Positions 12,073-24,454 of a DNA stretch of 64,000 bases are shown piece after piece. The stretch lies in the NCBI RefSeq assembly GCF_019456655.1, contig NZ_CP080332.1:4092001-4156000 (forward strand), written 5' to 3'. Every line of letters starts with the position of its first letter. Position 1 is the stretch's first letter. The notes beneath the pieces were generated by a model, which worked only from the letters and a program-made list of their open reading frames with translations, was not told where the DNA came from and searched no databases. The DNA is from Mycolicibacterium diernhoferi (GTDB lineage Bacteria > Actinomycetota > Actinomycetes > Mycobacteriales > Mycobacteriaceae). Made by a program: the position numbers and the translations under genes.

Positions 12073-12206
12073 GGCGCTCAGCGTACCGGTCAGTAATGAA
12101 CGGCCCCCGCACCAGCCCCCTGTATTCCTTTGACCACCGTTCCTGGGCGGCCGGTGCCACTTTCCGCGCTGTGCAGTCGTCGTCCTCGGGCTACGATCCG
12201 GGCATT

Positions 12207-13247
12207 ATGTGTGACAGCGCGGGGGCCCGGAACGGTCGTTCCCCGCGCCGTCACCTCGCTGCCGCGCTCACGTTGGCCGGGTTGGGCGTCCTTGCCGGGT
12301 GCGGATCCATCGACGAGGATCTCTCCCAGCCCATTGATTCGCCGATAGTCCTGGTAGACCGAACGAGCGACCCACTGGCGTCGTTACCGTTCTATGTCGA
12401 CCCGACCACCTCCGGCGCGGTCGCGGCGGGCATGGCCGTTCCACGCAAGCCGGAACTCGACTTGATCGCCGGCACCGCACAGGCTTGGTGGGTTGACCAA
12501 CAAACGCCGGTGGGCGAGGCGGCCGAAGCCATCCGATCCCACGCGGCCGGTGCCGCCGCTGACGGCGCGATGCCGGTTGTCGCCGTCTACGGCATCCCCA
12601 ACCGCGATTGCGGTGGATTCGCCTCGGGCGGGCTGCCCACGGGTGACGAATACCGTGCGTGGATCACTGAGTTGGTGAAGGGCATCGGGTCACTACCGGT
12701 GACCATCGTTCTGGAGCCGGATGCACTCACCGCCGCGGACTGTCTGTCCGAAGCCCAACGTCAGGAACGAATGGACTTGTTGGACTTCGCTGTTGACGCC
12801 TTCGGCAGCAACTCCGGAGCGGTGGTGTACATCGACGGCGGGCATTCACGGTGGCTCACCGCAGAGGACCTTGCGACGCGGCTGCGACAGGTCGGCGTCG
12901 CGAAAGCGCGCGGGTTCAGTCTGAACGTGTCGAACTTCTACACCACCGAGGAGCAAGTCGGGTACGGCGAACGGGTGTCTGCGCTGCTGGGCGGTGCACA
13001 CTATGTGATCGATACCTCCCGCAATGGACGCGGTCCGGCTCCCGACGGACCCCTGAACTGGTGCAATCCACCCGGACGATCGCTGGGCGTGTCTCCGACT
13101 GCGCAAACGGGTCACCCGCACGCAGACGCATATCTGTGGATCAAGCGGCCCGGTGAATCCGATGGAGAATGCGGCCGTGGCGATCCGAAGTCCGGACTGT
13201 TCATGGAGGACTACGCGGTGGGACTCGTCCGCGATCGGCCCCGCTGA
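12207..13247 (+). CDS. Glycoside hydrolase family 6 lipoprotein (cellulase/cellobiohydrolase family)
   Basis: Secreted beta-1,4-glucan hydrolase family. Seen: a basic N-terminus, hydrophobic core and lipobox LAGC with Cys32; both GH6 signatures, VYGIPNRDC (D134) and LEPDAL (D172, the usual catalytic acid); then YIDGGHSRW and DTSRNG. Start at 12207 rather than the frame's first ATG at 12096, because it puts the signal peptide at the N-terminus and a -10-like TACGAT lies nine bases upstream (leaderless mRNA). 346 residues, catalytic domain only. Its 3' end overlaps the convergent GT4 gene by 37 bases. In this setting it may trim or release the glycan made by its neighbours. Confidence 0.88.
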   Translation: MCDSAGARNGRSPRRHLAAALTLAGLGVLAGCGSIDEDLSQPIDSPIVLVDRTSDPLASLPFYVDPTTSGAVAAGMAVPRKPELDLIAGTAQAWWVDQQTPVGEAAEAIRSHAAGAAADGAMPVVAVYGIPNRDCGGFASGGLPTGDEYRAWITELVKGIGSLPVTIVLEPDALTAADCLSEAQRQERMDLLDFAVDAFGSNSGAVVYIDGGHSRWLTAEDLATRLRQVGVAKARGFSLNVSNFYTTEEQVGYGERVSALLGGAHYVIDTSRNGRGPAPDGPLNWCNPPGRSLGVSPTAQTGHPHADAYLWIKRPGESDGECGRGDPKSGLFMEDYAVGLVRDRPR

Positions 13248-14488
13248 TCGACCTGGGGGCCATCGAGCGCGCGCCGATACGCCGCGATGAACTTCGGCAC
13301 GACAACTGACGCACAGTAGTCGTGGGCCTTCACACTGCCGCAAGCTCCGTAGCTCTCCGCGCGCCGCGGGTCGCCGACCATCTCGTCGAGGGCTGCAGCC
13401 AGTGCGGACGGATCATTCGGCGGAACAATCAATCCGGTCTTCCCATGCTCGACAACCTCCGGGAGGGCACCGACCCTGGTAGCCACCACTGGGGTCCCGG
13501 CCGCCATGGCCTCCACCGCCACCAGACCCAACGGTTCCTGCCAGCGTGACGGCACGACTGCGACGGCTGCTGCCGCGAAGGTGGCCATGATCTCGGGATG
13601 GGGAATCCGGGTCAGCGTGCGCACCGGCCGGGTCGGCGTACCGACATACTTCTGAGTGTCGGCGCGTTCACTACCGATCACCACCAGAGGAACGGCGGCA
13701 CGCATGCGTTGGTGCGCAGCAACGGCCAACCCCAAGCCCTTATGGTCCCCAAGGGCACCGACGAATGCGACAAACGGGCCGTTGGGGAGGAACGAGGGCC
13801 GCGGCGTCAACCGCGCCTCGTCGAACACTGCATCGTCGACGAAGGATGGAATCCGACAGACGCGTTCGGCGCGCACCCCTGCCAGGCCGGCCACCTCGAC
13901 CGCCTCGCTGATCGGAAAGAACAGCGACACCTTGTCCAGCTGTCGCCAACTGTCCCGCAGCCCCAACGCGAGCGCGGTGCCCTTCAGCGTTCCGTAGTGG
14001 TCGCGCGTGCATGCCAGGCAGCGCCCCAGGCTGGGTCCTGCGCAGGGATCCTCCAGCCGATCGAACGAGATCAGCGTCTTGTTCGCGCAGCGCAGGCCGT
14101 AGTCGTGCAGTGTAGTGACCATCGCAGCCCCCGAGAGTCGCAGGCCAAGACAGGAATTGAGGATCCAGCCGTGCGCGTGCACGATGTCGGGGCAGAAGTC
14201 GTCCACAAGCTTCTGCAGGTGGCGAACCAATAGTGGGTCGGGAAAAGTCGGGTGGAAAAGATGGCCTGGGTCGCTGGCGAACCGCCGTAACCAGCGGGTG
14301 ACCCCATCGATACGGTGAATCTCGACACCCGTCTCGGTCACCTCGGTGTCGGGAGCATCCGGGCGCCCCAGTGTGGCGACGGCGACCCGGTGCCCCCTGG
14401 CGGCCAGTCCGTGCGACAAGGCTTCGACGACCCGCTCGGTACCGCCGGTGGCCGGCGGATACCCGTCGCTGACCTGCAGCACTCTCAT
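13211..14488 (-). CDS. Family 4 glycosyltransferase
   Basis: GT-B fold transferase of 425 residues, cytoplasmic, retaining type. Start at 14488 (MRVLQVSDGYPPATGGTERV) gives the canonical N-terminus with a glycine-rich turn; the longer frame upstream lies inside the flippase gene. Late motif PSRWQEPLGLVAVEAMAAG carries the E-x7-E pair used for donor binding, followed by GALPEVV. Two cysteine pairs in the N-terminal half (CAGPSLGRCLAC) are seen in many GT4 enzymes of surface-polysaccharide loci. Last gene of the leftward arm, coupled to the flippase by an ATGA overlap. Confidence 0.88.
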   Translation of the reverse strand: MRVLQVSDGYPPATGGTERVVEALSHGLAARGHRVAVATLGRPDAPDTEVTETGVEIHRIDGVTRWLRRFASDPGHLFHPTFPDPLLVRHLQKLVDDFCPDIVHAHGWILNSCLGLRLSGAAMVTTLHDYGLRCANKTLISFDRLEDPCAGPSLGRCLACTRDHYGTLKGTALALGLRDSWRQLDKVSLFFPISEAVEVAGLAGVRAERVCRIPSFVDDAVFDEARLTPRPSFLPNGPFVAFVGALGDHKGLGLAVAAHQRMRAAVPLVVIGSERADTQKYVGTPTRPVRTLTRIPHPEIMATFAAAAVAVVPSRWQEPLGLVAVEAMAAGTPVVATRVGALPEVVEHGKTGLIVPPNDPSALAAALDEMVGDPRRAESYGACGSVKAHDYCASVVVPKFIAAYRRALDGPQVDQRGRSRTSPTA

Positions 14489-15840
14489 CGGACAGATCCT
14501 TCGGCGGTCACCGGGGCAACGTCTTCGCAGACCGCCAGTGCGGCAGGCAGATCCGGTGTCACACCGCCACCGAGGATCGCCTTCCATCTGACCAGCACCC
14601 ATATGGCCCCGAGAGCCTGGCTCAACGTCCAGGCCAACCCGGCGCCCACGATGCCCAGGACCGGCAGGGCGTACCAGGCCCCGACCACACTGCCTATCAG
14701 TACGCCGACGTTCAGCACCAGCGCCGACCGGACCCGACGAGTCACCCGCAGCACCGACACCGCGACGTTGGAGATGGCGTCCGGGACCGCCGACACCGCC
14801 AGGATCAGCAGCAGAAGATAGCCGTGCTGCGCGTAATCCTCGCCGAAAACACCGAGAATCCACCGGCCCGCCACCACGTAGACCAGCACAGGAGCGGTCA
14901 GTAGCGCCAGGACGATCACCAGGCAGCGCCGCGCCTGGTGCGGCAGCTTTGACGGGTCGGCCGCCCCTTCCACGAACAGGGCGGCAGAAACCGCGGGACT
15001 GATGATGAAGAACACCGACCCGAGCATCCACGTGATGTAGAAGTAGGCATTGTCAGTCGCAGAGAGCCTGCTGACAACGATGATCGGTAGCACGTACCCA
15101 GCCAGCATCGCGGTCACTGTGATCAGGTGCTGGCCGGCCAGCGACGAGGCCATCTCGCGCACATGCGTGCGCATCCCGGTGAAGCTGGGCCACAGGGTGT
15201 TCCCCCCGCGATTACCGAAGAATAAGCACGTCCAGAGCAGCGACAGACCGGCGGCCGCGGTCCAGCTGAAGAGGATCGAGTCGGCGCCGGTCAGGACCGT
15301 AACTGGTAGCAGGATCAACGGTATTCGGGTACCGGACAACACCATGTTGCGCATCATCAGCAGGCCGCCTCGATGCTCGCAGATGGCCACGTAGTCGATC
15401 ACCTGACCGATCGAGAAGAAGACACACCCGAGCACGAACAGCATGGCGCCCGGCGGCGTCGCCAGCTGTGGCAGGGTTGCGAACCCAAACCCGAAAACTG
15501 CGACAACGGCCGACCCACCGGCCAGCGCAGTCACCGCGCCCACCACCCATGCGGTCGTCACCCGCCGCCGCCATTGCAGGGCATCCGCAGAGCGTGGCAG
15601 CCACTCGACCAGTGCGGCCGCTGCACCGACGCTGGCCGTCAGCACAGTGGCCTGAATCGCGCTCGTCGTCGCCGCGGCGGTTCCGCCGGCTTCGGTGTCG
15701 AAGATTCGCGCGACGACGATCCAGAACACATAGCCCAACGCCGAGGTCACGATCGTGTTGCCCATCAGGGCGACGCTGTTGCGCGTCATCGGGTCGGAGA
15801 GACCGGTGAGCCCCTGCCGCATTGCGCGTCGTTTACTCAC
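14485..15840 (-). CDS. Wzx-like polysaccharide flippase (MOP superfamily)
   Basis: Integral membrane protein of about 451 residues with some twelve hydrophobic segments spread over the whole length and short polar loops, the pattern of lipid-linked oligosaccharide flippases. The first segment (GNTIVTSALGYVFWIVVARI) resembles the start of many Wzx/RfbX proteins. GTG start at 15840 is chosen because it overlaps the previous stop as GTGA and has CGAGG upstream; an ATG 18 bases earlier is possible. Likely moves the lipid-linked glycan made by the neighbouring transferases across the membrane. Confidence 0.78.
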   Translation of the reverse strand: MSKRRAMRQGLTGLSDPMTRNSVALMGNTIVTSALGYVFWIVVARIFDTEAGGTAAATTSAIQATVLTASVGAAAALVEWLPRSADALQWRRRVTTAWVVGAVTALAGGSAVVAVFGFGFATLPQLATPPGAMLFVLGCVFFSIGQVIDYVAICEHRGGLLMMRNMVLSGTRIPLILLPVTVLTGADSILFSWTAAAGLSLLWTCLFFGNRGGNTLWPSFTGMRTHVREMASSLAGQHLITVTAMLAGYVLPIIVVSRLSATDNAYFYITWMLGSVFFIISPAVSAALFVEGAADPSKLPHQARRCLVIVLALLTAPVLVYVVAGRWILGVFGEDYAQHGYLLLLILAVSAVPDAISNVAVSVLRVTRRVRSALVLNVGVLIGSVVGAWYALPVLGIVGAGLAWTLSQALGAIWVLVRWKAILGGGVTPDLPAALAVCEDVAPVTAEGSVR

Positions 15841-16721
15841 GGTGCAACCTCGATCCACCCTGTCAACGTCACCGGCAGCCGCTCATGCAATGCGCCCTTC
15901 GAATGCGGATAAACCGAGATCGACACCCGGTGCAACCCAGCGCTGTCCGGCGCGGCGAAAGTCACCGATCCGCTGATTTCGATGGGGTCGCCCGGCTGAG
16001 CAGCCGCGCTGAAGTCACCGAGAACGACGGCGACAGCAGTCAACGGGCCACCGTCCAGCGCGACCTCCACCGCGGTGAGAGCCGGATCAGGCAGATAGCC
16101 GAAGGATCGCAAGATCCAGCCCACCGTCACCGGTTCGGCCGCAACCGCGCGCTGAGAAGCCTCTGACAGCCACGATTGATCGGCGAACGTGAGGGTCGTA
16201 TAGCTCTCCGCTGCTTTCGGCTGCAGTGCGATCGCCGCTACGACGGCTACGGCCAGAACCGCCGCGGCCGCGGAGGATGCCAGTGCCGGTCTGATGAGCT
16301 CGGCGGGGCGCGGACCGAAGCGCGGCAGGCGCCGCATGCCCTGGCCGATCACCAACGCTGCACCCATCGCAGCGGTGCCCGCAGTCACCCCCGTCGTGCC
16401 GATCCGAACGCCGCCGAAGTGCAGCGCGAGTACCACCGCCAGCAGAGAAACCGTGCCGAAGACGACGGTCAGGGGTAACCGAACCAGAGGATCAGCGAGC
16501 ATCGGCCGTCTCCTCGATTCCCCCAGGAGCAGTTGCGTCAGAGCCGAACCGGTTATCAGAACCAAGATCGCCAAGCAGGCGAGCCCCACTACCGGAGGAC
16601 ACGCAGACACCGTTACCGTCAACGACACCACGCCCAGGAGCACGAGCTTGGCGCATAACACCGGCAGTACGGCGATATGCGTTTGCCGGCGCCCTGTGGA
16701 CGCCTGTGCCCTGGTGGTCAT
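15837..16721 (-). CDS. Membrane protein with C-terminal extracytoplasmic domain, function unknown
   Basis: 294 residues not assigned to a family. The N-terminal half has about four hydrophobic segments; after another helix (ASSAAAAVLAVAVVAAIALQ) the last 130 residues look like a soluble beta-rich domain (repeated VTV and ISV strands). Coupled by 4-base overlaps to the GT-C-like gene before it and the flippase after it. The position suggests an accessory to assembly or polymerisation of the glycan outside the membrane, which is inference only. Confidence 0.6.
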   Translation of the reverse strand: MTTRAQASTGRRQTHIAVLPVLCAKLVLLGVVSLTVTVSACPPVVGLACLAILVLITGSALTQLLLGESRRRPMLADPLVRLPLTVVFGTVSLLAVVLALHFGGVRIGTTGVTAGTAAMGAALVIGQGMRRLPRFGPRPAELIRPALASSAAAAVLAVAVVAAIALQPKAAESYTTLTFADQSWLSEASQRAVAAEPVTVGWILRSFGYLPDPALTAVEVALDGGPLTAVAVVLGDFSAAAQPGDPIEISGSVTFAAPDSAGLHRVSISVYPHSKGALHERLPVTLTGWIEVAP

Positions 16722-18685
16722 CTGGCCTCCGAGTCGCGTTCCAGGTGCAGCCTGTACACCCGGATGCTTTCGGTGGACAGAACCCGAGTAGCCCAGGGTG
16801 CGGCGTCGAGGCGGTCCAAATTGGGCATTGGAGTTTTGTCGCCGAGCAGCGGATCGTGCTCACCGAAGTTGTGGCCGTTGAACGGGATCTGCTCGCCCAT
16901 GTGCACGTTCACCACCAAGTACCGGTAATCCGACGTCCACAGCATCTCGGCCAACTCTGAAGACGGGTCTGCGTCGGTCTGGGTCAATTCCCAGGCCGGA
17001 AACCCTGGAGATGGTGCGGCCATGATCATGCCGCCGTTGGCGGCCAACTGAAGCGCCGTGTACCTGTCGCTGACCACTTTGACGCGGCCGAACTGAGCGT
17101 GCATCTGTTCGGCCAACACCCGATTCTCCCGGGTGGCCGAATTGGTGTCGGTCCCCCAGCGGAACGGTCCGGGGAATCGGTACGGGTCGTTGAGCCCGCC
17201 GGCCACGTTGCCCACGAGAAGGACCACGATCAGCACAGCTGACCACACCGCCATCGCCCGCTGCCTGATGAGGACGAAAAAATGCAAACCCTCTGCGGGC
17301 CAACGGGTGACCACCATGGCTGCGACGATTGCGATACCGACGTACACAAAACCCCACGACCGGCGCGCCCCTTCGGCCCCGGACGGGGCCAGGATGAAGG
17401 GCAGCGAGACGAAGTAGAGCAGACCGAACAGCGCAAACCCGAAGGTCGTCAGGTTCGGCCGCACCACGCGCCGCCGCACCAGCAAGGCCGCCAGAATCGT
17501 GGTCCCTAAGAGGGCGGCCGGAGCACCGGCGGTGAATACCCGTTCCCAGAGCGGCTGGACACTGGCCGACAACAGTTTTCGGCCACCCGATCCGCTTTTC
17601 TGCGCCATGCTCTGCAGTTGATCGACCGAGTTGCCGAAATAGGGCGAGAGGTAGTCCAGAGTCGGGCGGGCGAAGAACCAGATCCACACCGCGGCGATGG
17701 ACAGCACCACTCCGAGAATCACCCACCATGTGGTCGCAACTCTCAGCGATTGCCGTCCGATCCCGACACCGCGGCGGCGGAGAAGAGCCGTGCCCGCGGT
17801 GACGGCGCCGGCGACGGTCGCCAATGCAACGATCAGGAACACCGTCGTCAAGTGGTGGGTGACGACGATTGCCGCGGTCAACAACGCGACGGCAGCCACG
17901 GTACGCAAGCGGCGCCCGCGGTACGGAGTCGTGGCCGCGATCGAACCCAGTGCCAGCACCCAGAGGAACAGGTTGACGGCCAGACTTTCGTAGGCGTACT
18001 GGGTGTCGAAGTACACCGCCGACGGGTTGAGTCCGTAGACGCAGGCGGCGATAGCCCCCGCCCGGGGCGACCCCAATAACCGGTCACCCAGAACAAACAC
18101 GGCGAAGAGCCCACAGATGTGCAACGTCGCAACAGCCGCCAACCCCGCGGTCCACAACGACAGACCGCTGACCGACTGGACCGCGACGGTCAGACCGGAA
18201 GTGCCCGGGAAGAACTCGACGATCGGAATAAGGGTGTTCGGCTGGAACAGCTGTCCGGTCGCAGCGACGTCGAGCGCTTCACGCCAGTGTGCGTACTCGT
18301 CGTGGTATCGCGGACCGTCCGGGTTTCGCAGCAGCTTCGGCACCATTGTGACCGCGCCGAGCATCAATATCGACCAGCCCCTGTCAGCTCGGGATGTATT
18401 GTGCATGAACAGTTTTGCAGCCACCGGAAGGGCACCGGCGAACATGCCCAGCCAGAACACGGCGTAGTAGGTGGAAGCCGCTGCCCCGAGCCCGGACAAA
18501 CGGTAGGAATAGCCGATCATCAGGATGCCCGCCGCAGCCGCTGAGACGACTACGGGCCATCCGGCCGCCCGGGCCACGACAACTCGGTGAATTCCGGGCG
18601 TGATCAGCTTCCGGTGCCTAGCCCGACTCCCGTCCACCATCGGCACGCACACCGGCGCAAGCGGCGGTTTGACAGCAGAGGTCAT
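16718..18685 (-). CDS. Large GT-C-like membrane glycosyltransferase or polymerase
   Basis: About 655 residues with roughly a dozen membrane segments and a C-terminal soluble domain of some 130 residues. An acidic DEYAHW motif follows the second or third helix, matching the Asp-Glu pair in the first external loop of GT-C enzymes that use lipid-phosphate sugars. Start at 18685 (MTSAVKPP) overlaps the upstream stop as ATGA; the ATG at 18736 is less likely. Candidate for a sugar transfer or polymerisation step on the outer face of the membrane. A Wzy-type polymerase is the alternative. Confidence 0.65.
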   Translation of the reverse strand: MTSAVKPPLAPVCVPMVDGSRARHRKLITPGIHRVVVARAAGWPVVVSAAAAGILMIGYSYRLSGLGAAASTYYAVFWLGMFAGALPVAAKLFMHNTSRADRGWSILMLGAVTMVPKLLRNPDGPRYHDEYAHWREALDVAATGQLFQPNTLIPIVEFFPGTSGLTVAVQSVSGLSLWTAGLAAVATLHICGLFAVFVLGDRLLGSPRAGAIAACVYGLNPSAVYFDTQYAYESLAVNLFLWVLALGSIAATTPYRGRRLRTVAAVALLTAAIVVTHHLTTVFLIVALATVAGAVTAGTALLRRRGVGIGRQSLRVATTWWVILGVVLSIAAVWIWFFARPTLDYLSPYFGNSVDQLQSMAQKSGSGGRKLLSASVQPLWERVFTAGAPAALLGTTILAALLVRRRVVRPNLTTFGFALFGLLYFVSLPFILAPSGAEGARRSWGFVYVGIAIVAAMVVTRWPAEGLHFFVLIRQRAMAVWSAVLIVVLLVGNVAGGLNDPYRFPGPFRWGTDTNSATRENRVLAEQMHAQFGRVKVVSDRYTALQLAANGGMIMAAPSPGFPAWELTQTDADPSSELAEMLWTSDYRYLVVNVHMGEQIPFNGHNFGEHDPLLGDKTPMPNLDRLDAAPWATRVLSTESIRVYRLHLERDSEAR

Positions 18686-19869
18686 TCTCGACTCTTCGCT
18701 ACCAAAGCGTCGATGGCCCCCGCCAGAGGCGCCCACGTATGGGGATTCGGATATCGGCTATCGCGCCGGGTGGCGACCTCAAGGATTGCTTGCCGCAGTC
18801 CTGGGATGTCACCGGGCGCCACCAGCGTGGCACCCGGGTAGTCGCGGACAGCCTCCGACAGACCTCCGACATCGTAGAGGATCACCGCGATGCCATTGCT
18901 CATCGCGGCTTGTAGCGGCCCACTCGCCGAGCCCCGGCGGTAAGGAAGGACGAGCATGTCCGCGCGTGCGAAAAATCCGGTTGCCTCAGAGTCCGAGACG
19001 TAGCGATTCTCGAAATGGATTCGATCCCGATAAGGGCTGGCGGCGATGGCTTCTGCTGGCGCGGTCCAGTTTTCCCACGTTTCGCCGACGACGTCGACCA
19101 CGAGTCCGTTGGCCTGTTCGGGTGTCATACCATCGATCGCAGCGATCAGATCCTCCGCGCCCTTGTACGGGCGGATCAAGCCGAAGAAGAGCACACGAGC
19201 CGGCCCGCCGCCGGAGCGGTGCCGGTTCTCGATGGTTGAACCGAGTGCCGTCATGTGGTTATACGGCCCATGCGGTGCGACTCGGGAAGGAATCTGGCGG
19301 ACCACCTCGGGCCCCAACAGGTCGGCGATCGACTCCCGGTCATGTTCATTGTGGAAGATTGCTCCGGAACACTCCCGGACCAGCCTGCGCAGGAACGACC
19401 GGCCATATCTGGCGACACCAGGAACGGCCGCTTCACCCGTGTCCTGAGCCTCATGAAACTCGATGAACACGGGGATGTTCAGGCCGCGGGCAATGCGCGC
19501 GATCAGTAGATAGGTGTGCAGGCTGGCAGCCGTCCACCACTGCAGCACGATGACGTCCGGCTTGGCGTCCTGGATCCACGCGGACAACCTGGCGATGCCA
19601 CTGCCCCAATACCAGTCGACGTTCCCGACCATGCGCACCCGCGGGTCGTACCTCAGCGAGGTGAGATCCTGTCCCACCCGTGCCGCGCCCGGGTATAGCC
19701 GCCTGGGCACGAGTCGATCGAGCAGGAGTACCGAAACGTCGTGAGTTTCCACCAGCGCGTTGGCGAGCGAGCACGTGTAGACCGACAAGCCGCCAAGGAA
19801 GCGGAATCCGGGCCCGACAAGCAGGATCCGGTTCCGGACCATGCCCGTGTCCGCGGACTGCCCCGCCAT
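18682..19869 (-). CDS. Family 4 glycosyltransferase (SG-variant lacking the E-x7-E pair)
   Basis: 395-residue GT-B transferase. N-terminus RILLVGPGFRFLGGLSVYT is a typical acceptor-side start; the late region reads YRRGSASGPLQAAMSNGIAV, the variant seen in a subset of GT4 enzymes where the usual E-x7-E glutamates are replaced and SG contacts the donor. Start at 19869 follows the GT2 stop by seven bases; a second ATG at 19842 is equally possible since neither has a strong ribosome site. Second gene of the leftward arm, coupled to the GT-C-like gene. Confidence 0.85.
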   Translation of the reverse strand: MAGQSADTGMVRNRILLVGPGFRFLGGLSVYTCSLANALVETHDVSVLLLDRLVPRRLYPGAARVGQDLTSLRYDPRVRMVGNVDWYWGSGIARLSAWIQDAKPDVIVLQWWTAASLHTYLLIARIARGLNIPVFIEFHEAQDTGEAAVPGVARYGRSFLRRLVRECSGAIFHNEHDRESIADLLGPEVVRQIPSRVAPHGPYNHMTALGSTIENRHRSGGGPARVLFFGLIRPYKGAEDLIAAIDGMTPEQANGLVVDVVGETWENWTAPAEAIAASPYRDRIHFENRYVSDSEATGFFARADMLVLPYRRGSASGPLQAAMSNGIAVILYDVGGLSEAVRDYPGATLVAPGDIPGLRQAILEVATRRDSRYPNPHTWAPLAGAIDALVAKSRE

Positions 19870-19876
19870 CGAGGCG

Positions 19877-20689
19877 CTATGGCGCGACACGGGCCACCTG
19901 CGCCGACTCATCACTGAGCAGCCCGTCACCACCATCGGCCGGGGCGACGAATGCCACGACGTTGGCGCCGGTGGCGAACGGACCGACGGGCAGACCGGGC
20001 GGCTTACGCAACCGTGCGGCGGCCAACAGTCGAAGACACTCGACACCGTCCCACCAGCTGATCTTCTTACCTTCACTTGCGGTCCGGCCGTTGTAAGTCA
20101 CCGGAACCTCGTAGGGCCGGATTCCGGAGCGGAGCAGCGCCGCAGTCATCTCGGTGTCCAGACCAAAGCCTGACTCGCTGAGCCGCAAAGATCGGAAGTG
20201 TTGTACCGGAATCAATTTCAAGCAGGTGTGCATGTCGGTCAGGCAGGAATCGAAGAGGAGGTTGGCGCCCAAGGTGGTCAACCTGCCCCCAACTGCGAAC
20301 CTGAACGACGGGAAACGGGTGTTGAAGCCGAACACCCGAGACCCGAACACATGATCGGCAATTCCGGACAGCACCGGAGCGAGGAGACTGGGGATATCCG
20401 ACGGGTGGTATTCCAGGTCCGCGTCGAGAATCAGCATATGCGTACCAGTGGCTTTCCGAGCGCCACGAGTCACCGCCGAACCCTTGCCGCGGTTGAACGG
20501 CTGGAGCAGAACCGTGACTCCCCTGCTTGCGTAGTCCGCCAAGATGTTCCGCGTGCCGTCGGTGCTGCCGTCGTCGACCACGATGAGTTCCACCGGGCAC
20601 GGATAGTCGACAGCGAGAACTCGGTCCAACGCGGACGCGACCGTCTCAGATTCGTTGTAAACGGGCATGACGATCGACAACAGAACCAT
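19877..20689 (-). CDS. Family 2 glycosyltransferase, dolichol-phosphate-mannose-synthase-like
   Basis: GT-A inverting transferase, 270 residues. Seen: LSIVMPVYNE at the N-terminus, ELIVVDDGSTDGT (nucleotide binding), NRGKGSAVTRG, and the metal-binding DADLEYHP. These are the hallmarks of polyprenyl-phosphate sugar synthases. No membrane anchors are obvious. Start at 20689 is set by the strong GAGGGGGGCGAC upstream. As first gene of the leftward arm it could supply the polyprenyl-phosphate sugar used by the GT-C-like enzyme downstream, a common pairing. Confidence 0.87.
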   Translation of the reverse strand: MVLLSIVMPVYNESETVASALDRVLAVDYPCPVELIVVDDGSTDGTRNILADYASRGVTVLLQPFNRGKGSAVTRGARKATGTHMLILDADLEYHPSDIPSLLAPVLSGIADHVFGSRVFGFNTRFPSFRFAVGGRLTTLGANLLFDSCLTDMHTCLKLIPVQHFRSLRLSESGFGLDTEMTAALLRSGIRPYEVPVTYNGRTASEGKKISWWDGVECLRLLAAARLRKPPGLPVGPFATGANVVAFVAPADGGDGLLSDESAQVARVAP

Positions 20690-21129
20690 GTCGCCCCCCT
20701 CGGCGTCGGATCGCTCGGCGGATGCCGTGCGCGTACACCACGACGACTCCGTCGCGGTCTCCATGTCGCCATCGCCCACCTCCGGCGCAGGATCTGCCAT
20801 TTCTAGCACACTTTAATGAACATGGTGAAAACCATTTCGCTGAGCGGATACGGCTTTGCCAGAATGCAATATTTGCGCACGAAACAACTTGGAATCTCCA
20901 ACGTAAACGGGAAGTTAAATGCGTCCTACCTGTATTTTTATTAACTCGAAGGATCTATTGACGAGGGCGCCACTCTAAGCTACGAAGTTTTCTATAGTGG
21001 CTCGCTTTCGCGTCGATGAAGACGCCCTGCTAGAGTTTCAGCGAACAATGGCAAACTCCGCCAGCTCCACCCACGGTGGCCCGCGCCGCCCGTGGAGGGT
21101 TCGAGCACATTCGAAAGGCAAGACGCCGA
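20690..21129. promoter_or_regulatory. Divergent promoter region of the glycan cassette
   Basis: About 440 bases between the two arms with no convincing gene. The part from about 20810 to 21000 is visibly AT-rich compared with the rest of the window. A good -10 (TATAGT, 20993-20998) points towards the rightward arm; no clear -35 is at the right distance. An AT-rich centre is where both arms must be switched on and is a likely site for a nucleoid protein such as Lsr2, which is inferred. Confidence 0.45.
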
Positions 21130-22044
21130 GTGACACCACGGATACCAACAAGGCGCCTACGCCTCTTCGCGGTCGTGATCGCATCGGTCGTTTCGGTGGC
21201 CGGACTGTGCACGGGCGGCGCACATGCGTGGCATGACCGCACTGAGGTCACCTACTACGTATCGGTCGGCGACTCCTATGCCGCGGGCTACCGCCCCGAT
21301 GGCAAATCGGGCCTCGAGACAGGCGATGGCTACGCTTACCAGTTGACCGACATCCTCAACCGGTCTGGTCGCTGGGAGCTGCGGAACTTCGGCTGCGTGG
21401 GCCAAACAGCTCACGGAATGCAGCTCGACAATGGCTGCACCGCAGGGGCTTTGGCTTCAGGTGGGGTGGACTACCCCGAGACGACACAGCTACGAGCCGC
21501 CGATACGTTCATGGCGGAGCACCAGGGCGAGGTCGGCTTGGTCACCGTCGCCATGGGTGCCAACGACATGGTGCGGTGCCTCGATCTCGCCGATGACGGC
21601 GCGGTCCAGCACTGCGCCGAACAGATGTCAACCGAGGTCCGACAGAGCCTCGGCGTCTTCCTGACCGCAACACGCGCGCTGCTGGGCAACGACGTCCCGA
21701 TCGTCGGGATCTCCTACTTCAACGTCTTCCACGCGGCGGGCCCGGCCGGCCCGCTCGAAGCCAGTCGCCGCAGCACGCTGTCACAGACACTGTTCGACAA
21801 CTACCTCAACCCGACCTTGCGGGACATCTACTCACAGGCGGGCGCCTATTTCGTCGACAGTTCGACGATAGCGGGGAACGATCTTCCCGAAAGTCGCATG
21901 TCGCCGCTTCCAGGGCACGGAACTGTCAGCACCTCGACCGCTCGGCTCTGCGGCCTGACTTACTACTGCTCAGATCACGACCCTCATCCGAACCGGGCTG
22001 GACACGCATTGATCGCCCAAGCGATCGCAGAGGCGATCACGTGA
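21130..22044 (+). CDS. Secreted SGNH/GDSL hydrolase
   Basis: Esterase or deacylase fold of about 304 residues. A signal peptide is clear (RIPTRRLR basic part, hydrophobic LFAVVIASVVSVAGLC, then AHA). Block I VSVGDSYAAGY holds the catalytic Ser, GANDM is block III, and DHDPHPNRAGH carries the Asp-x-x-His pair. GTG start at 21130 has AAAGG upstream and gives a compact signal peptide; a GTG at 21076 is possible. First gene of the rightward arm, overlapping the next gene as GTGA. With an acyltransferase in the same operon, a role in editing acyl groups on the exported glycan is plausible. Confidence 0.85.
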   Translation: MTPRIPTRRLRLFAVVIASVVSVAGLCTGGAHAWHDRTEVTYYVSVGDSYAAGYRPDGKSGLETGDGYAYQLTDILNRSGRWELRNFGCVGQTAHGMQLDNGCTAGALASGGVDYPETTQLRAADTFMAEHQGEVGLVTVAMGANDMVRCLDLADDGAVQHCAEQMSTEVRQSLGVFLTATRALLGNDVPIVGISYFNVFHAAGPAGPLEASRRSTLSQTLFDNYLNPTLRDIYSQAGAYFVDSSTIAGNDLPESRMSPLPGHGTVSTSTARLCGLTYYCSDHDPHPNRAGHALIAQAIAEAIT

Positions 22045-23168
22045 CCACCCGAGTGCTGATGGTGACCCCCGGCTTCCGCGGCCGCCCGGGCGGGGTCGAG
22101 GTGCACTGCTCGGAGCTGATCGCCGGATTGGCCGCGTATGACATGGACATCGACGTCATAACCGCCGCCCGAGGAGTCCGACGGCGGACAGAGAAGTCGT
22201 ACGATGACTGCCGTTCAACGGTTTACCCGGCCTGGCGCGCGCAGTCCATGTCGATCGCGCCGCGAGTGGCGCTCGGAGCGGCGCACCGGCAATTCGGAGC
22301 CGACATCGTGCACGTTCACAGTTATCACGCCACGACGGCGATCGCCGCACTGGTAACCCGTCGTCCGGTCGTGTTCACTCCGCACTACCACGGCCAGCAG
22401 GGCCACTCGGTGGCAGCCGGACTGTTGCACAAAGCATTCCGGCATCTCGGAGGGCGGGTACTGCGACGAGCCGACGTGGTCATCTGCGTGTCACGCGCCG
22501 AACGGGACCTGCTGATCCAGGATTTCCCCTTCGTCGCGAACAAGGTCGAGGTGATCCCTAATGGCGCGCACGTCGAAGATCTCCGACGTGCCGAGCCGTT
22601 CCCCGAAACGGCTCCGACGGCACTCTGCGTCGGCAGGCTGGAGCCTTATAAGCGATTCGCCGATGTCATCCGGTGCTTCGCCGATGTCGCACCGCCGGCG
22701 CGTCTGGTGATCATCGGCGGCGGCAGCCAGTATGACGAACTTTGTTCACTCGTAGGAGAACTCGAGATCGGCGACCGCGTGCAGTTGTGCGGACGAGTGG
22801 ACACCGACATCGTGCGGCGTTGGCTGCGCACCGCTACCGTGGTCGTCTCGATGTCCGAGCATGAAGCGTTCGGAATGGTCCCGCTCGAGGCGGCTGCCGC
22901 CGGTGCCCGTGTGGTGCTCAGCGACATCCCAGCCCACCGCGAAGTGTTCGCCGACCACCTTCGCGGGCGTGGCGTCGTGGTCGACGACGACACATCGCTG
23001 GCACGGCACATATCCGCGCAACTGGCCGAAGGCCGCCCACCCACACCGGCTGACGTACCCGGCTGGACATCAATCGCGGACCGGACCGCCGAGGCCTATC
23101 AGCGGCTGATGGCACGTTCTGGTTCGGCATCCGTAGACAGACGAGAGCCTCGAGAGGCAGCACGATGA
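22041..23168 (+). CDS. Family 4 glycosyltransferase
   Basis: 375-residue cytoplasmic GT-B transferase. Seen: VLMVTPGFRGRPGGVEVH at the start, DIVHVHSYH in the first domain, VEVIPNGAHVE at the domain linker, VGRLEPYKRF, and SEHEAFGMVPLEAAAAG with the E-x7-E pair. GTG start overlaps the previous stop. Second gene of the rightward arm. Confidence 0.88.
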   Translation: MTTRVLMVTPGFRGRPGGVEVHCSELIAGLAAYDMDIDVITAARGVRRRTEKSYDDCRSTVYPAWRAQSMSIAPRVALGAAHRQFGADIVHVHSYHATTAIAALVTRRPVVFTPHYHGQQGHSVAAGLLHKAFRHLGGRVLRRADVVICVSRAERDLLIQDFPFVANKVEVIPNGAHVEDLRRAEPFPETAPTALCVGRLEPYKRFADVIRCFADVAPPARLVIIGGGSQYDELCSLVGELEIGDRVQLCGRVDTDIVRRWLRTATVVVSMSEHEAFGMVPLEAAAAGARVVLSDIPAHREVFADHLRGRGVVVDDDTSLARHISAQLAEGRPPTPADVPGWTSIADRTAEAYQRLMARSGSASVDRREPREAAR

Positions 23169-24454
23169 TTCCAAACTTGTCGGATTCCCACCGGGCCCGG
23201 CCCAGCTGGATCGACCGCACCTGGGCGGGCCACTACTCGGTACTGTCGCTGAGCCCGATCGAGCAGCCTGACATCGCGCGACTGAAGGCAGATCTGCTCG
23301 AATTGATGGCCTCCGACCCGGCGAACCCGGTCAACTGTGTCCTCAGCGCGGACGGTCGACGATGGATGGAGGTGGAGGAGGCAACGCGCGTCAGGCACCT
23401 CGACAGCGTCGTCATGGCCACCGGCCCCTTCGATACCGAGGATCCGTACGACTATCTCCGCCAACACGCGCCAGACCCTACTTCGGGCATTCCGTACAAG
23501 GTGCTCGTGGGACCGGATTCACTGACCTGCTATATCGCCCACGTACTCGGCGACGCCGTGGTGGTGTGCTCGTTCGCCGTCCTCCTGGCGTTGGGCGATG
23601 TCCACGGGCTACGTCACCTGCGACCAGACTCGGGGATGGGGCTCGCGGTACGCCTGCTGAGGTCGGAGGCACGAGACCACTACAAGTCGTGGTGGCAACA
23701 CTTCCGTGCGGCGCCGAAGGTGCAGGCTCCGCCGATCCCAGCCGGTGGCAATCGACCCGTACCGGCGCTGATCAGCAGCGACGCAGTCGGTCATCGAATT
23801 TCGCCGGAAGCCGTCGCTGCATTGCAGGACTGGCGCAGGACCACGTGCCCGGAAGTGTCGACATCTGGGCTGATTGCAGCGGCGACGCACCGCGCGTTGA
23901 CCCGCAACGGCATCAAGATGAATCCGGATGGCTTCTTCACCTTGGTGGACCTGCGCCGGTATCTGCCGGAGAAACAGGCACTGCGCCCGGGCAATATCGT
24001 CAAAAGCGTCTTCATTCCCGCGTGCATGAACGACCCGTCGGACGTCGGCGCCGGCATCAAGGAAGCCGTTTCGTCCGCACGTGCGATACCAGCGCTGGCC
24101 ATCGGTGCCCTCAGCTCTGGACTGAGACCCGGTTCCCGACAACCTGCGATATCTGAATCCGCATATTCGACGATGACTTTCAACTACATGATGCGACTAC
24201 CCGGTACCGACCACATCCCCTGGCGAGACCTCGGTGCGGCCCGGTTCTCGTCGATGTCCTACCCGTGCACCCCCGACAATCTGGCGATTTTCGCGTGCGG
24301 GGTGGCCGGAGCCGTCCACTTTTCGGCCAGCTTCGTACCCGAGATCATCGATAAGTCAGCGGTACGGAACGCGTTGCAAGAACTCGACGACATACCTGCC
24401 CTGCTCGCACCGGAGTCCGCGGACGTCGGTCTCGGCGGGGACACCCCGGGCTGA
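23165..24454 (+). CDS. Condensation-domain/CAT-fold acyltransferase
   Basis: 429 residues. The pattern IPYKVLVGPDSLTCYIAHVLGDAVVVC matches the HxxxD active-site region of the chloramphenicol-acetyltransferase/condensation/PapA superfamily; here it reads HVLGDA, with Ala where most have Gly. The second half shows the usual N-rich linker (GFFTLVDLRRYLP, then GNIVKSVFI) of these pseudo-dimeric enzymes. Such proteins move acyl groups from CoA or carrier proteins to hydroxyls. ATGA overlap with the GT4 gene. Likely decorates the glycan or glycolipid made here. No signal peptide, so it acts inside the cell. Confidence 0.7.
   Translation: MIPNLSDSHRARPSWIDRTWAGHYSVLSLSPIEQPDIARLKADLLELMASDPANPVNCVLSADGRRWMEVEEATRVRHLDSVVMATGPFDTEDPYDYLRQHAPDPTSGIPYKVLVGPDSLTCYIAHVLGDAVVVCSFAVLLALGDVHGLRHLRPDSGMGLAVRLLRSEARDHYKSWWQHFRAAPKVQAPPIPAGGNRPVPALISSDAVGHRISPEAVAALQDWRRTTCPEVSTSGLIAAATHRALTRNGIKMNPDGFFTLVDLRRYLPEKQALRPGNIVKSVFIPACMNDPSDVGAGIKEAVSSARAIPALAIGALSSGLRPGSRQPAISESAYSTMTFNYMMRLPGTDHIPWRDLGAARFSSMSYPCTPDNLAIFACGVAGAVHFSASFVPEIIDKSAVRNALQELDDIPALLAPESADVGLGGDTPG

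What the first reader, a model, noticed from the sequence alone, without database searches (positions are those of the whole stretch)
12207..24454. A 12-kb glycan biosynthesis, export and modification cassette between ndk and folC
Seen: nine contiguous genes in two divergent arms, with four glycosyltransferases, a GT-C-like membrane enzyme, a Wzx-like flippase, an unknown membrane protein, an SGNH hydrolase and an acyltransferase, plus a GH6 gene at the edge; most junctions are ATGA or GTGA overlaps. Known: in M. tuberculosis ndkA (Rv2445c) and the DUF4233 gene (Rv2446c) are adjacent. Inferred: a lipid-linked, acylated surface polysaccharide or glycolipid assembled, flipped and trimmed by one locus, gained or kept by this lineage. 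I know of no described mycobacterial system with this gene set.
Basis: partly seen in the sequence, partly recalled or inferred. Interest (0 to 1): 0.8.

Follow-up and report, generated by a model that had tools for sequence, protein, structure and literature searches.

The report
Mycobacterial cousin of sporangium-matrix polysaccharide cluster
A few mycobacteria carry, as an inserted ten-gene block, a version of the recently described gene set with which Actinoplanes builds the sugar matrix around its spores, here with a probable acylation arm and its own cellulase-family enzyme.

Summary
In detail: ten genes (not nine; the GH6 gene belongs) lie between ndk and DUF4233-folC in two divergent arms. 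The core is not an unknown gene set. Seven genes match, class for class, the imp cluster (impA-impG) of Actinoplanes missouriensis, which makes the sporangium-matrix polysaccharide (mBio 2025); two of the GT4 genes have changed places. The block has the same order and strands in 6 of 6 mycobacterial cassettes compared (window included), sits at other sites in M. neglectum and M. sp. AZCC_0083, is missing from the DUF4233-ndk gap in 25 of 29 relatives, and has lower G+C than the rest of the window: an acquired island, with strong GT-C homologues in 5 of 396 genomes of the genus (own included). Added here: the Wzy-position enzyme models as an STT3/AglB-like GT-C enzyme; the unknown membrane protein stands in ImpD's place and is weakly DUF1616-like; the cassette GH6 is a distinct paralogue that travels with the block; an SGNH hydrolase and an HxxxD protein (fused to a cassette glycosyltransferase in Actinokineospora pegani) suggest acyl decoration. 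Best reading: a repeat-unit polysaccharide, flipped by Wzx and polymerised by the GT-C enzyme. The product is untested. New variant of a known kind.

The parts
12207..13247 (+). GH6 beta-glucanase, putative lipoprotein (LAGC lipobox, recalled motif); convergent with the GT4a gene; cassette-specific paralogue
   Evidence: PF01341 E 4.4e-59 (scanned from the longer frame 12096-13247); CelA1/Cel6 structures 1uoz and 1up0 best, about 389 bits (that they are from M. tuberculosis is recalled); cassette GH6 one side of a 100/99 branch
13211..14488 (-). GT4a glycosyltransferase, ImpB-like
   Evidence: PF00534/PF13692/PF13439; 35-41% to the Actinoplanes gene next to wzx
14485..15840 (-). Wzx-type flippase (MatE), about 11 hydrophobic segments, ImpC-like
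   Evidence: PF01554 26.2 bits, cut-off 24.9 (frame 14485-15858)
15837..16721 (-). ImpD-position membrane protein: 5 helices plus C-terminal beta-sandwich in the model; homologues weakly DUF1616-like
   Evidence: model pLDDT 68, pTM 0.44; DUF1616 in 4 of 7 (best E 5.1e-6) and 7 of 13 (best 0.012) homologues, below Pfam's cut-off wherever bits were shown, window copy no hit
16718..18685 (-). GT-C membrane transferase, ImpE-like, proposed polymerase
18682..19842 (-). GT4b glycosyltransferase, ImpA-like
   Evidence: Pfam; 45-49% to Actinoplanes
19877..20689 (-). GT2 glycosyltransferase, ImpG-position; start could be as far up as 20809
   Evidence: TIGR04182 106.9 bits, below its cut-off of 325 (frame 19877-20809); dolichol-phosphate mannose synthase best PDB hit
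20690..21075 (.). divergent intergenic region between the two arms
   Evidence: 386-base gap; no sigma-70-like site found
21076..22044 (+). SGNH/GDSL hydrolase with one N-terminal hydrophobic segment, possible secreted deacylase
   Evidence: PF13472, PF00657; GDS and GxND blocks
22041..23168 (+). GT4c glycosyltransferase, ImpF-like
   Evidence: Pfam; 35-40% to Actinoplanes
23165..24454 (+). putative HxxxD acyltransferase (AT; no library hit)
   Evidence: H126 and D130 invariant in 6 of 6; one open frame with the GT4c homologue in Actinokineospora pegani

Best explanation
The block is an imp-type exopolysaccharide cluster. Three GT4 enzymes and one GT2 enzyme build a short oligosaccharide on a polyprenyl carrier inside the cell; the Wzx protein flips it; the GT-C enzyme, an STT3/AglB-like fold standing where Wzy would stand, joins repeat units en bloc outside, helped by the ImpD-like protein. 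The second arm decorates the glycan: the HxxxD protein adds an acyl group, perhaps to the sugar that the neighbouring GT4 places, and the SGNH hydrolase edits it. The GH6 enzyme cuts the finished polymer, as GimA/GimB (GH5) cut the sporangium matrix. Shown here: gene content, homology, order, insertion, predicted fold. Inferred: substrates, linkages, acylation, polymer. A prediction follows: with retaining GT4 enzymes, beta links should come only from the GT2 and/or GT-C steps, so GH6 should release whole repeat units or halves.
For: Class-by-class match with ImpA-ImpG as described in PMC12691653 (outline, passages, part 1 of the discussion). GT2, GT4c, GT-C, Wzx, GT4a and GT4b homologues are in 16 of 16 Actinoplanes/Symbioplanes loci, in imp order in 15 of 16. 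Published single deletions of all seven imp genes gave squashed sporangia, and the impD mutant showed no matrix. A GH5 gene lies convergent beside the ImpA gene in L018 and L027 (2 of 3 Actinoplanes candidates scanned). Rhizobium plasmid locus L002 pairs a full-length GT-C homologue (hhalign 99.9%, E 3.6e-34) with a gene annotated as flippase, a GH5 cellulase and a polysaccharide export protein (PF02563/SLBB), which points to polymer rather than protein glycan. GT-C, GT4a and GH6 trees give the same main groups among the mycobacterial blocks. GT4c-AT fusion; beta-ketoacyl synthase genes follow AT in three other cassettes.
Against: No product is known. No Wzy- or Wzz-family hit and no initiating transferase are in the block; the genome has 2 PF00953 and 4 PF02397 genes elsewhere. 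The order is not identical to imp: the ImpA-like gene stands where ImpF stands and the ImpF-like gene is in the other arm. GT2 is only 26-31% like the Actinoplanes gene; the two ImpD groups align over 64 columns only, and my script listed an ImpD-like frame in 8 of 16 Actinoplanes-type loci, none in the other 8. In the paper the impG mutant and the whole-cluster deletion were milder than the other single mutants, and GimA/GimB group with beta-mannosidases, not glucanases. AT has no significant family match and the comparison with two resident PapA-like proteins was inconclusive (0.6%). A. missouriensis itself was not among my loci.
Confidence: 0.7

Rival explanations
1. Oligosaccharyltransferase system: the GT-C enzyme transfers the flipped oligosaccharide once, to protein, as STT3/PglB/AglB do.
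Against: The WWD acceptor motif (recalled) is absent from the window protein: its only WW, at residue 320, reads WWVI. imp deletions change a bulk matrix; the Rhizobium homologue sits with a polysaccharide export gene; a beta-glycanase accompanies the block.
Confidence: 0.12
2. Glycolipid or lipooligosaccharide system: a short acylated oligosaccharide stays on a lipid at the cell surface, with no polymer.
For: Acyltransferase-like protein with an HxxxD motif, beta-ketoacyl synthase neighbours in three other cassettes; mycobacteria make acylated glycolipids (recalled).
Against: No polyketide synthase or acyl-AMP ligase hit in the ten genes; the core occurs in Actinoplanes and Rhizobium loci without an AT hit; a GH6 endo-type enzyme fits a polymer better (inference).
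Confidence: 0.13
3. Decayed or silent island with no product.
For: The M. aurum wzx homologue is read in two frames; the block has low G+C.
Against: All ten window frames are open and 6 of 9 junctions keep 4-base overlaps; all ten genes persist in order in the four more distant cassettes at about 30-69% protein identity.
Confidence: 0.05

Closest known systems
imp cluster (impA-impG) of Actinoplanes missouriensis, PMC12691653
   Same: Three GT4, one GT2, Wzx, ImpD-type protein and ImpE-type GT-C protein, with wzx-impD-impE and the ImpB gene next to wzx kept in order, and a glycoside hydrolase gene beside it
   Different: GH6 here instead of GH5; ImpA-like GT4 stands between GT2 and GT-C; ImpF-like GT4 is in a second divergent arm with SGNH and HxxxD genes; mycobacteria form no sporangia (recalled)
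Canonical Wzx/Wzy exopolysaccharide pathway
   Same: Lipid-linked repeat unit, MatE/MOP flippase, external polymerisation (proposed)
   Different: No Wzy- or Wzz-family hit and no initiating transferase in the block; a GT-C fold in the Wzy place
M. tuberculosis Cel6 (Rv0062), PMC10816823 (abstract and passages seen)
   Same: GH6; described there as an endo-beta-1,4-cellulase acting on biofilm matrix
   Different: Cassette GH6 is a separate paralogue (100/99 branch); the five cassette Mycobacterium genomes searched also keep a resident copy
Rhizobium leguminosarum plasmid locus (L002, NC_012858.1)
   Same: GT2, GT4, GT-C homologue, membrane protein with a weak DUF1616 match, annotated flippase, GH5 cellulase
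   Different: Polysaccharide export gene and DUF6492 gene; no SGNH or AT hit
Oligosaccharyltransferases STT3/AglB/PglB
   Same: GT-C fold over model residues 95-649
   Different: No WWD motif; genomic company is that of polysaccharide export

Membership tests
imp-type cluster | three GT4 and one GT2 genes | tested here: met
imp-type cluster | wzx, impD, impE consecutive | tested here: met
   ImpD by position, helices and a weak profile match only (64 columns, 92%)
imp-type cluster | full imp gene order | tested here: not met
   ImpA-like and ImpF-like GT4 genes have changed places
imp-type cluster | adjacent beta-glycanase | tested here: met
   GH6 instead of GH5
imp-type cluster | needed for a matrix polysaccharide | not testable with these tools
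   needs deletion strains
Canonical Wzx/Wzy pathway | MatE/MOP flippase | tested here: met
   PF01554 just over cut-off
Canonical Wzx/Wzy pathway | Wzy of the O-antigen ligase-like families in the block | tested here: not met
   no such Pfam hit at E <= 1 in the ten genes
Canonical Wzx/Wzy pathway | Wzz/co-polymerase in the block | tested here: not met
   no such Pfam hit; ImpD could stand in, as PMC13390465 suggests
Canonical Wzx/Wzy pathway | initiating phosphoglycosyl transferase | tested here: inconclusive
   none in the block; 2 PF00953 and 4 PF02397 genes elsewhere
Protein oligosaccharyltransferase | GT-C fold of STT3/AglB type | tested here: met
   (predicted model)
Protein oligosaccharyltransferase | WWD acceptor motif (recalled) | tested here: not met
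   window protein only
GH6 | family profile and LEPD/RDC motifs (motifs recalled) | tested here: met
PapA/condensation HxxxD acyltransferases | HxxxD motif | tested here: met
PapA/condensation HxxxD acyltransferases | profile similarity | tested here: inconclusive

The most novel reading that the evidence does not exclude
Imp-type clusters define a polysaccharide polymerisation route separate from Wzy: an oligosaccharyltransferase-fold GT-C enzyme with a DUF1616-like partner polymerises flipped repeat units, in Actinobacteria and in Rhizobium, usually beside a beta-glycanase of changing family (GH5, GH6, perhaps GH113) that cuts a link made in the last steps; in mycobacteria the repeat is also acylated, giving a lipid-decorated matrix polymer.
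Probability: 0.35. Interest if true: 0.72.

Novelty: new variant of a known kind. Interest (0 to 1): 0.52.

Why it matters
It ties an orphan mycobacterial gene block to a genetically tested pathway, offers a fold-based role for the unexplained ImpE and ImpD proteins, and makes the chemistry testable: the cassette GH6 is a candidate tool to release the repeat unit of a polymer whose structure the imp authors call unknown (PMC13390465, introduction). It also suggests that cellulase-sensitive matrix in some mycobacteria need not be cellulose.

Tried and rejected
Plasmid search with the GT-C protein found 19 records (18 Rhizobium, 1 Mesorhizobium), none covering 80%, so no mycobacterial plasmid carrier was seen. 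Rfam: nothing. tRNA genes: none in the window, so no tRNA integration site there. PDB search with SGNH: nothing. AT against PDB and NCBIfam: no meaningful hit. Foldseek of the ImpD-like model gave generic beta-sandwich hits (CARDB, immunoglobulin-type domains), not used for function. DUF1616 in papers: one paper, two table entries of a haloarchaeal glycoproteome (listing and passages); DUF6541: no paper. Promoter scan: none.

Caveats: the GT2 query ran 12 codons past its stop by my mistake. Family draw: 3 of 101, own included. Empty-site count: 29 same-genus relatives with loci out of 58 other genomes with a folC match: 25 have a DUF4233-ndk gap of at most 295 bases, one 875, three show no ndk within the DNA held (one of them at a contig end). 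Trees used selected loci (17 and 19 rows); the GT4a tree carries a long-branch warning and joins Actinoplanes to the second mycobacterial type, unlike the GT-C tree. Protein searches scored only the candidates sharing most words. The G+C control segments all lie downstream of the block and overlap each other.
Full report
WHAT IS THERE. Between ndk and the DUF4233-folC pair lie ten genes in two divergent arms. Minus-strand arm, in reading order: GT2 (19877-20689), GT4b, GT-C, a 294-aa membrane protein, a MatE/Wzx-like flippase, GT4a; convergent with its end is a GH6 gene. Plus-strand arm: SGNH hydrolase, GT4c, and a 429-aa protein (AT) with an HxxxD motif. Six of nine junctions are 4-base overlaps. 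Family calls are; the GT-C, membrane and HxxxD proteins of the window match no Pfam family at E <= 1.

IT IS AN INSERT. In 25 of 29 relatives examined DUF4233 and ndk lie at most 295 bases apart; the nearest by folC (G034, 90%) has 47 bases. One has 875 bases and three show no ndk in the DNA held. G+C of the block is 64.5%, below every one of 110 overlapping 12.2-kb segments of the rest of the window, 66.7-68.6%. M. aurum carries the block at the same place (L003, GT-C 79%). In M. neglectum (L004), M. sp. AZCC_0083 (L005), genome G055 (L061; its contig length equals that of an M. madagascariense record) and a Mycobacteriaceae MAG (L006) all ten genes have the same order and strands, but no ndk, DUF4233 or folC hit lies within the DNA held. 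With window and M. aurum that is 6 of 6. Strong GT-C homologues (59% or more) occur in 5 of 396 genomes of the genus, own included.

IT IS IMP-TYPE. PMC12691653 (outline, passages and part 1 of the discussion seen) describes impA-impG of Actinoplanes missouriensis: ImpA, ImpB and ImpF are GT4, ImpG GT2, ImpC a Wzx-type protein with 11 helices, ImpD a 5-helix protein without domains, ImpE an Alg6/Alg8-like protein with 11 helices that may act as Wzy; gimB, a GH5 gene, is adjacent. All single deletions gave squashed sporangia (impG also normal ones) and the impD mutant showed no matrix; the whole-cluster deletion was milder. PMC13390465 (outline, two sections, passages) gives the same proposed roles and suggests that ImpD may assist ImpC/ImpE or act as Wzz. 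All 16 Actinoplanes/Symbioplanes loci fetched (L012-L027) hold homologues of six window genes; 15 have the order GT2, GT4c, GT-C, gap, Wzx, GT4a, GT4b, which is imp read from G to A; in L013 GT4b stands after GT2. In the gap between GT-C and Wzx my script listed an ImpD-like membrane frame in 8 of 16 loci and none in the other 8. In L018 and L027 a GH5 gene is convergent beside GT4b; the third candidate scanned (L015) did not reach the GH5 family. By sequence, GT4b is ImpA, GT4a ImpB, the flippase ImpC, GT-C ImpE, GT4c ImpF, GT2 ImpG; the 294-aa protein is ImpD by position. In the window ImpA-like and ImpF-like genes have changed places, the latter to the other arm.

INTERMEDIATES. Rhodococcus yunnanensis and R. 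globerulus (L007, L010) have the core with GH6 but no SGNH or AT hit; three Actinokineospora loci (L008, L009, L011) have the core with SGNH and AT but no GH6 hit, L009 being cut off just beyond GT4a. GT-C and GT4a trees put the six mycobacterial blocks on one side of a 100/99 branch, nearest Rhodococcus and Actinokineospora; the GT4a tree carries a long-branch warning for its deep part. A more distant cluster type occurs in six other Mycobacterium genomes (GT-C 31-33%); its GT-C genes form a separate group (4 of 6 used).

IMPD. Frames at this place have 3-6 hydrophobic segments; the window model has five helices and a beta-sandwich (pLDDT 68, pTM 0.44; only the sandwich is well modelled). DUF1616 is the commonest family among homologues (4 of 7 and 7 of 13), E 5.1e-6 to 0.77 where single values were shown, below Pfam's cut-off in each; the window copy has no hit. 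The two ImpD groups align over 64 columns only.

GH6. The genome has two GH6 genes. Each of five cassette Mycobacterium genomes searched has two and each of four without this cassette has one; both Rhodococcus genomes and the MAG have one, at the cassette; A. pegani has none. In a 17-row tree the eight cassette copies and the nine resident copies are the two sides of a 100/99 branch. Rv0062, a GH6 of M. tuberculosis, is described as an endo-beta-1,4-cellulase that disperses biofilm (PMC10816823, abstract and passages). A GH113 gene in L064 and GH5 in the Rhizobium locus suggest that a beta-glycanase is a frequent companion; I did not scan all loci, and three genes scanned beside the cluster in L062 were no hydrolases of this kind.

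ACYL ARM. The protein search gave 39 AT homologues; five carry a mycobacterial name, none that of another genus, and one is called acyltransferase by its source (the Actinokineospora forms were not among them). 13 of the 39 have a longest contig equal in length to that of a listed GT-C homologue, so the gene seems bound to this block. In A. pegani one open frame of 792 aa holds GT4c and AT. In three other blocks a beta-ketoacyl synthase gene follows AT (M. neglectum and AZCC_0083 by Pfam; G055 by likeness of its start only).

MECHANISM AND STEREOCHEMISTRY. GT4 enzymes retain (stated in PMC12691653); GT2 and GT-C enzymes invert (recalled). Then beta links can come only from GT2 and from the GT-C step, at most two kinds per repeat; GimA and GimB cut at two different positions (PMC12691653), which fits, although they group with beta-mannosidases and GimA cut none of seven test polysaccharides, so their bonds need not be those that GH6 cuts. 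Four transferases predict four sugars, five with a separate initiator; the papers estimate four to eight. This is a prediction, not a result.

VERDICT. Real, well bounded, acquired and coherent; a variant of a cluster described in 2025, not a new kind. Product chemistry is open.

Noticed in passing
L003:12848-14196: The M. aurum wzx homologue is read in two frames, changing at about residue 387; frameshift or assembly error.
   Followed up: no
L004:2660-3850 and 16626-17816: Two beta-ketoacyl synthase-like genes with near-alike starts flank the cassette on the same strand in M. neglectum, a possible recombination footprint; only the first was scanned.
   Followed up: partly
L062, L064: A second imp-like cluster type in other mycobacteria: in L062 with polysaccharide deacetylase, UDP-glucose dehydrogenase and AMP-ligase genes, in L064 with a GH113 gene.
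   Followed up: partly
L011:15030-17117, L008:18389-20482, L012:6183-6989, L027:4650-5483: Glycerophosphodiester phosphodiesterase genes lie near the cluster in Actinokineospora and Actinoplanes; in L011 next to GT4a, where GH6 stands in mycobacteria.
   Followed up: partly
L071:6002-7201: A polysaccharide pyruvyl transferase gene lies beside a distant GT-C/Wzx pair in another Mycobacterium genome.
   Followed up: no
window 18682-19842: A scan for the EX7E motif of GT4 enzymes (recalled) found it at the expected C-terminal place in GT4a and GT4c but not in the ImpA-like GT4b.
   Followed up: no
window 20690-20813: Likeness to M. aurum runs on upstream of the assumed GT2 start, so the true start may be near 20800-20809.
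   Followed up: partly
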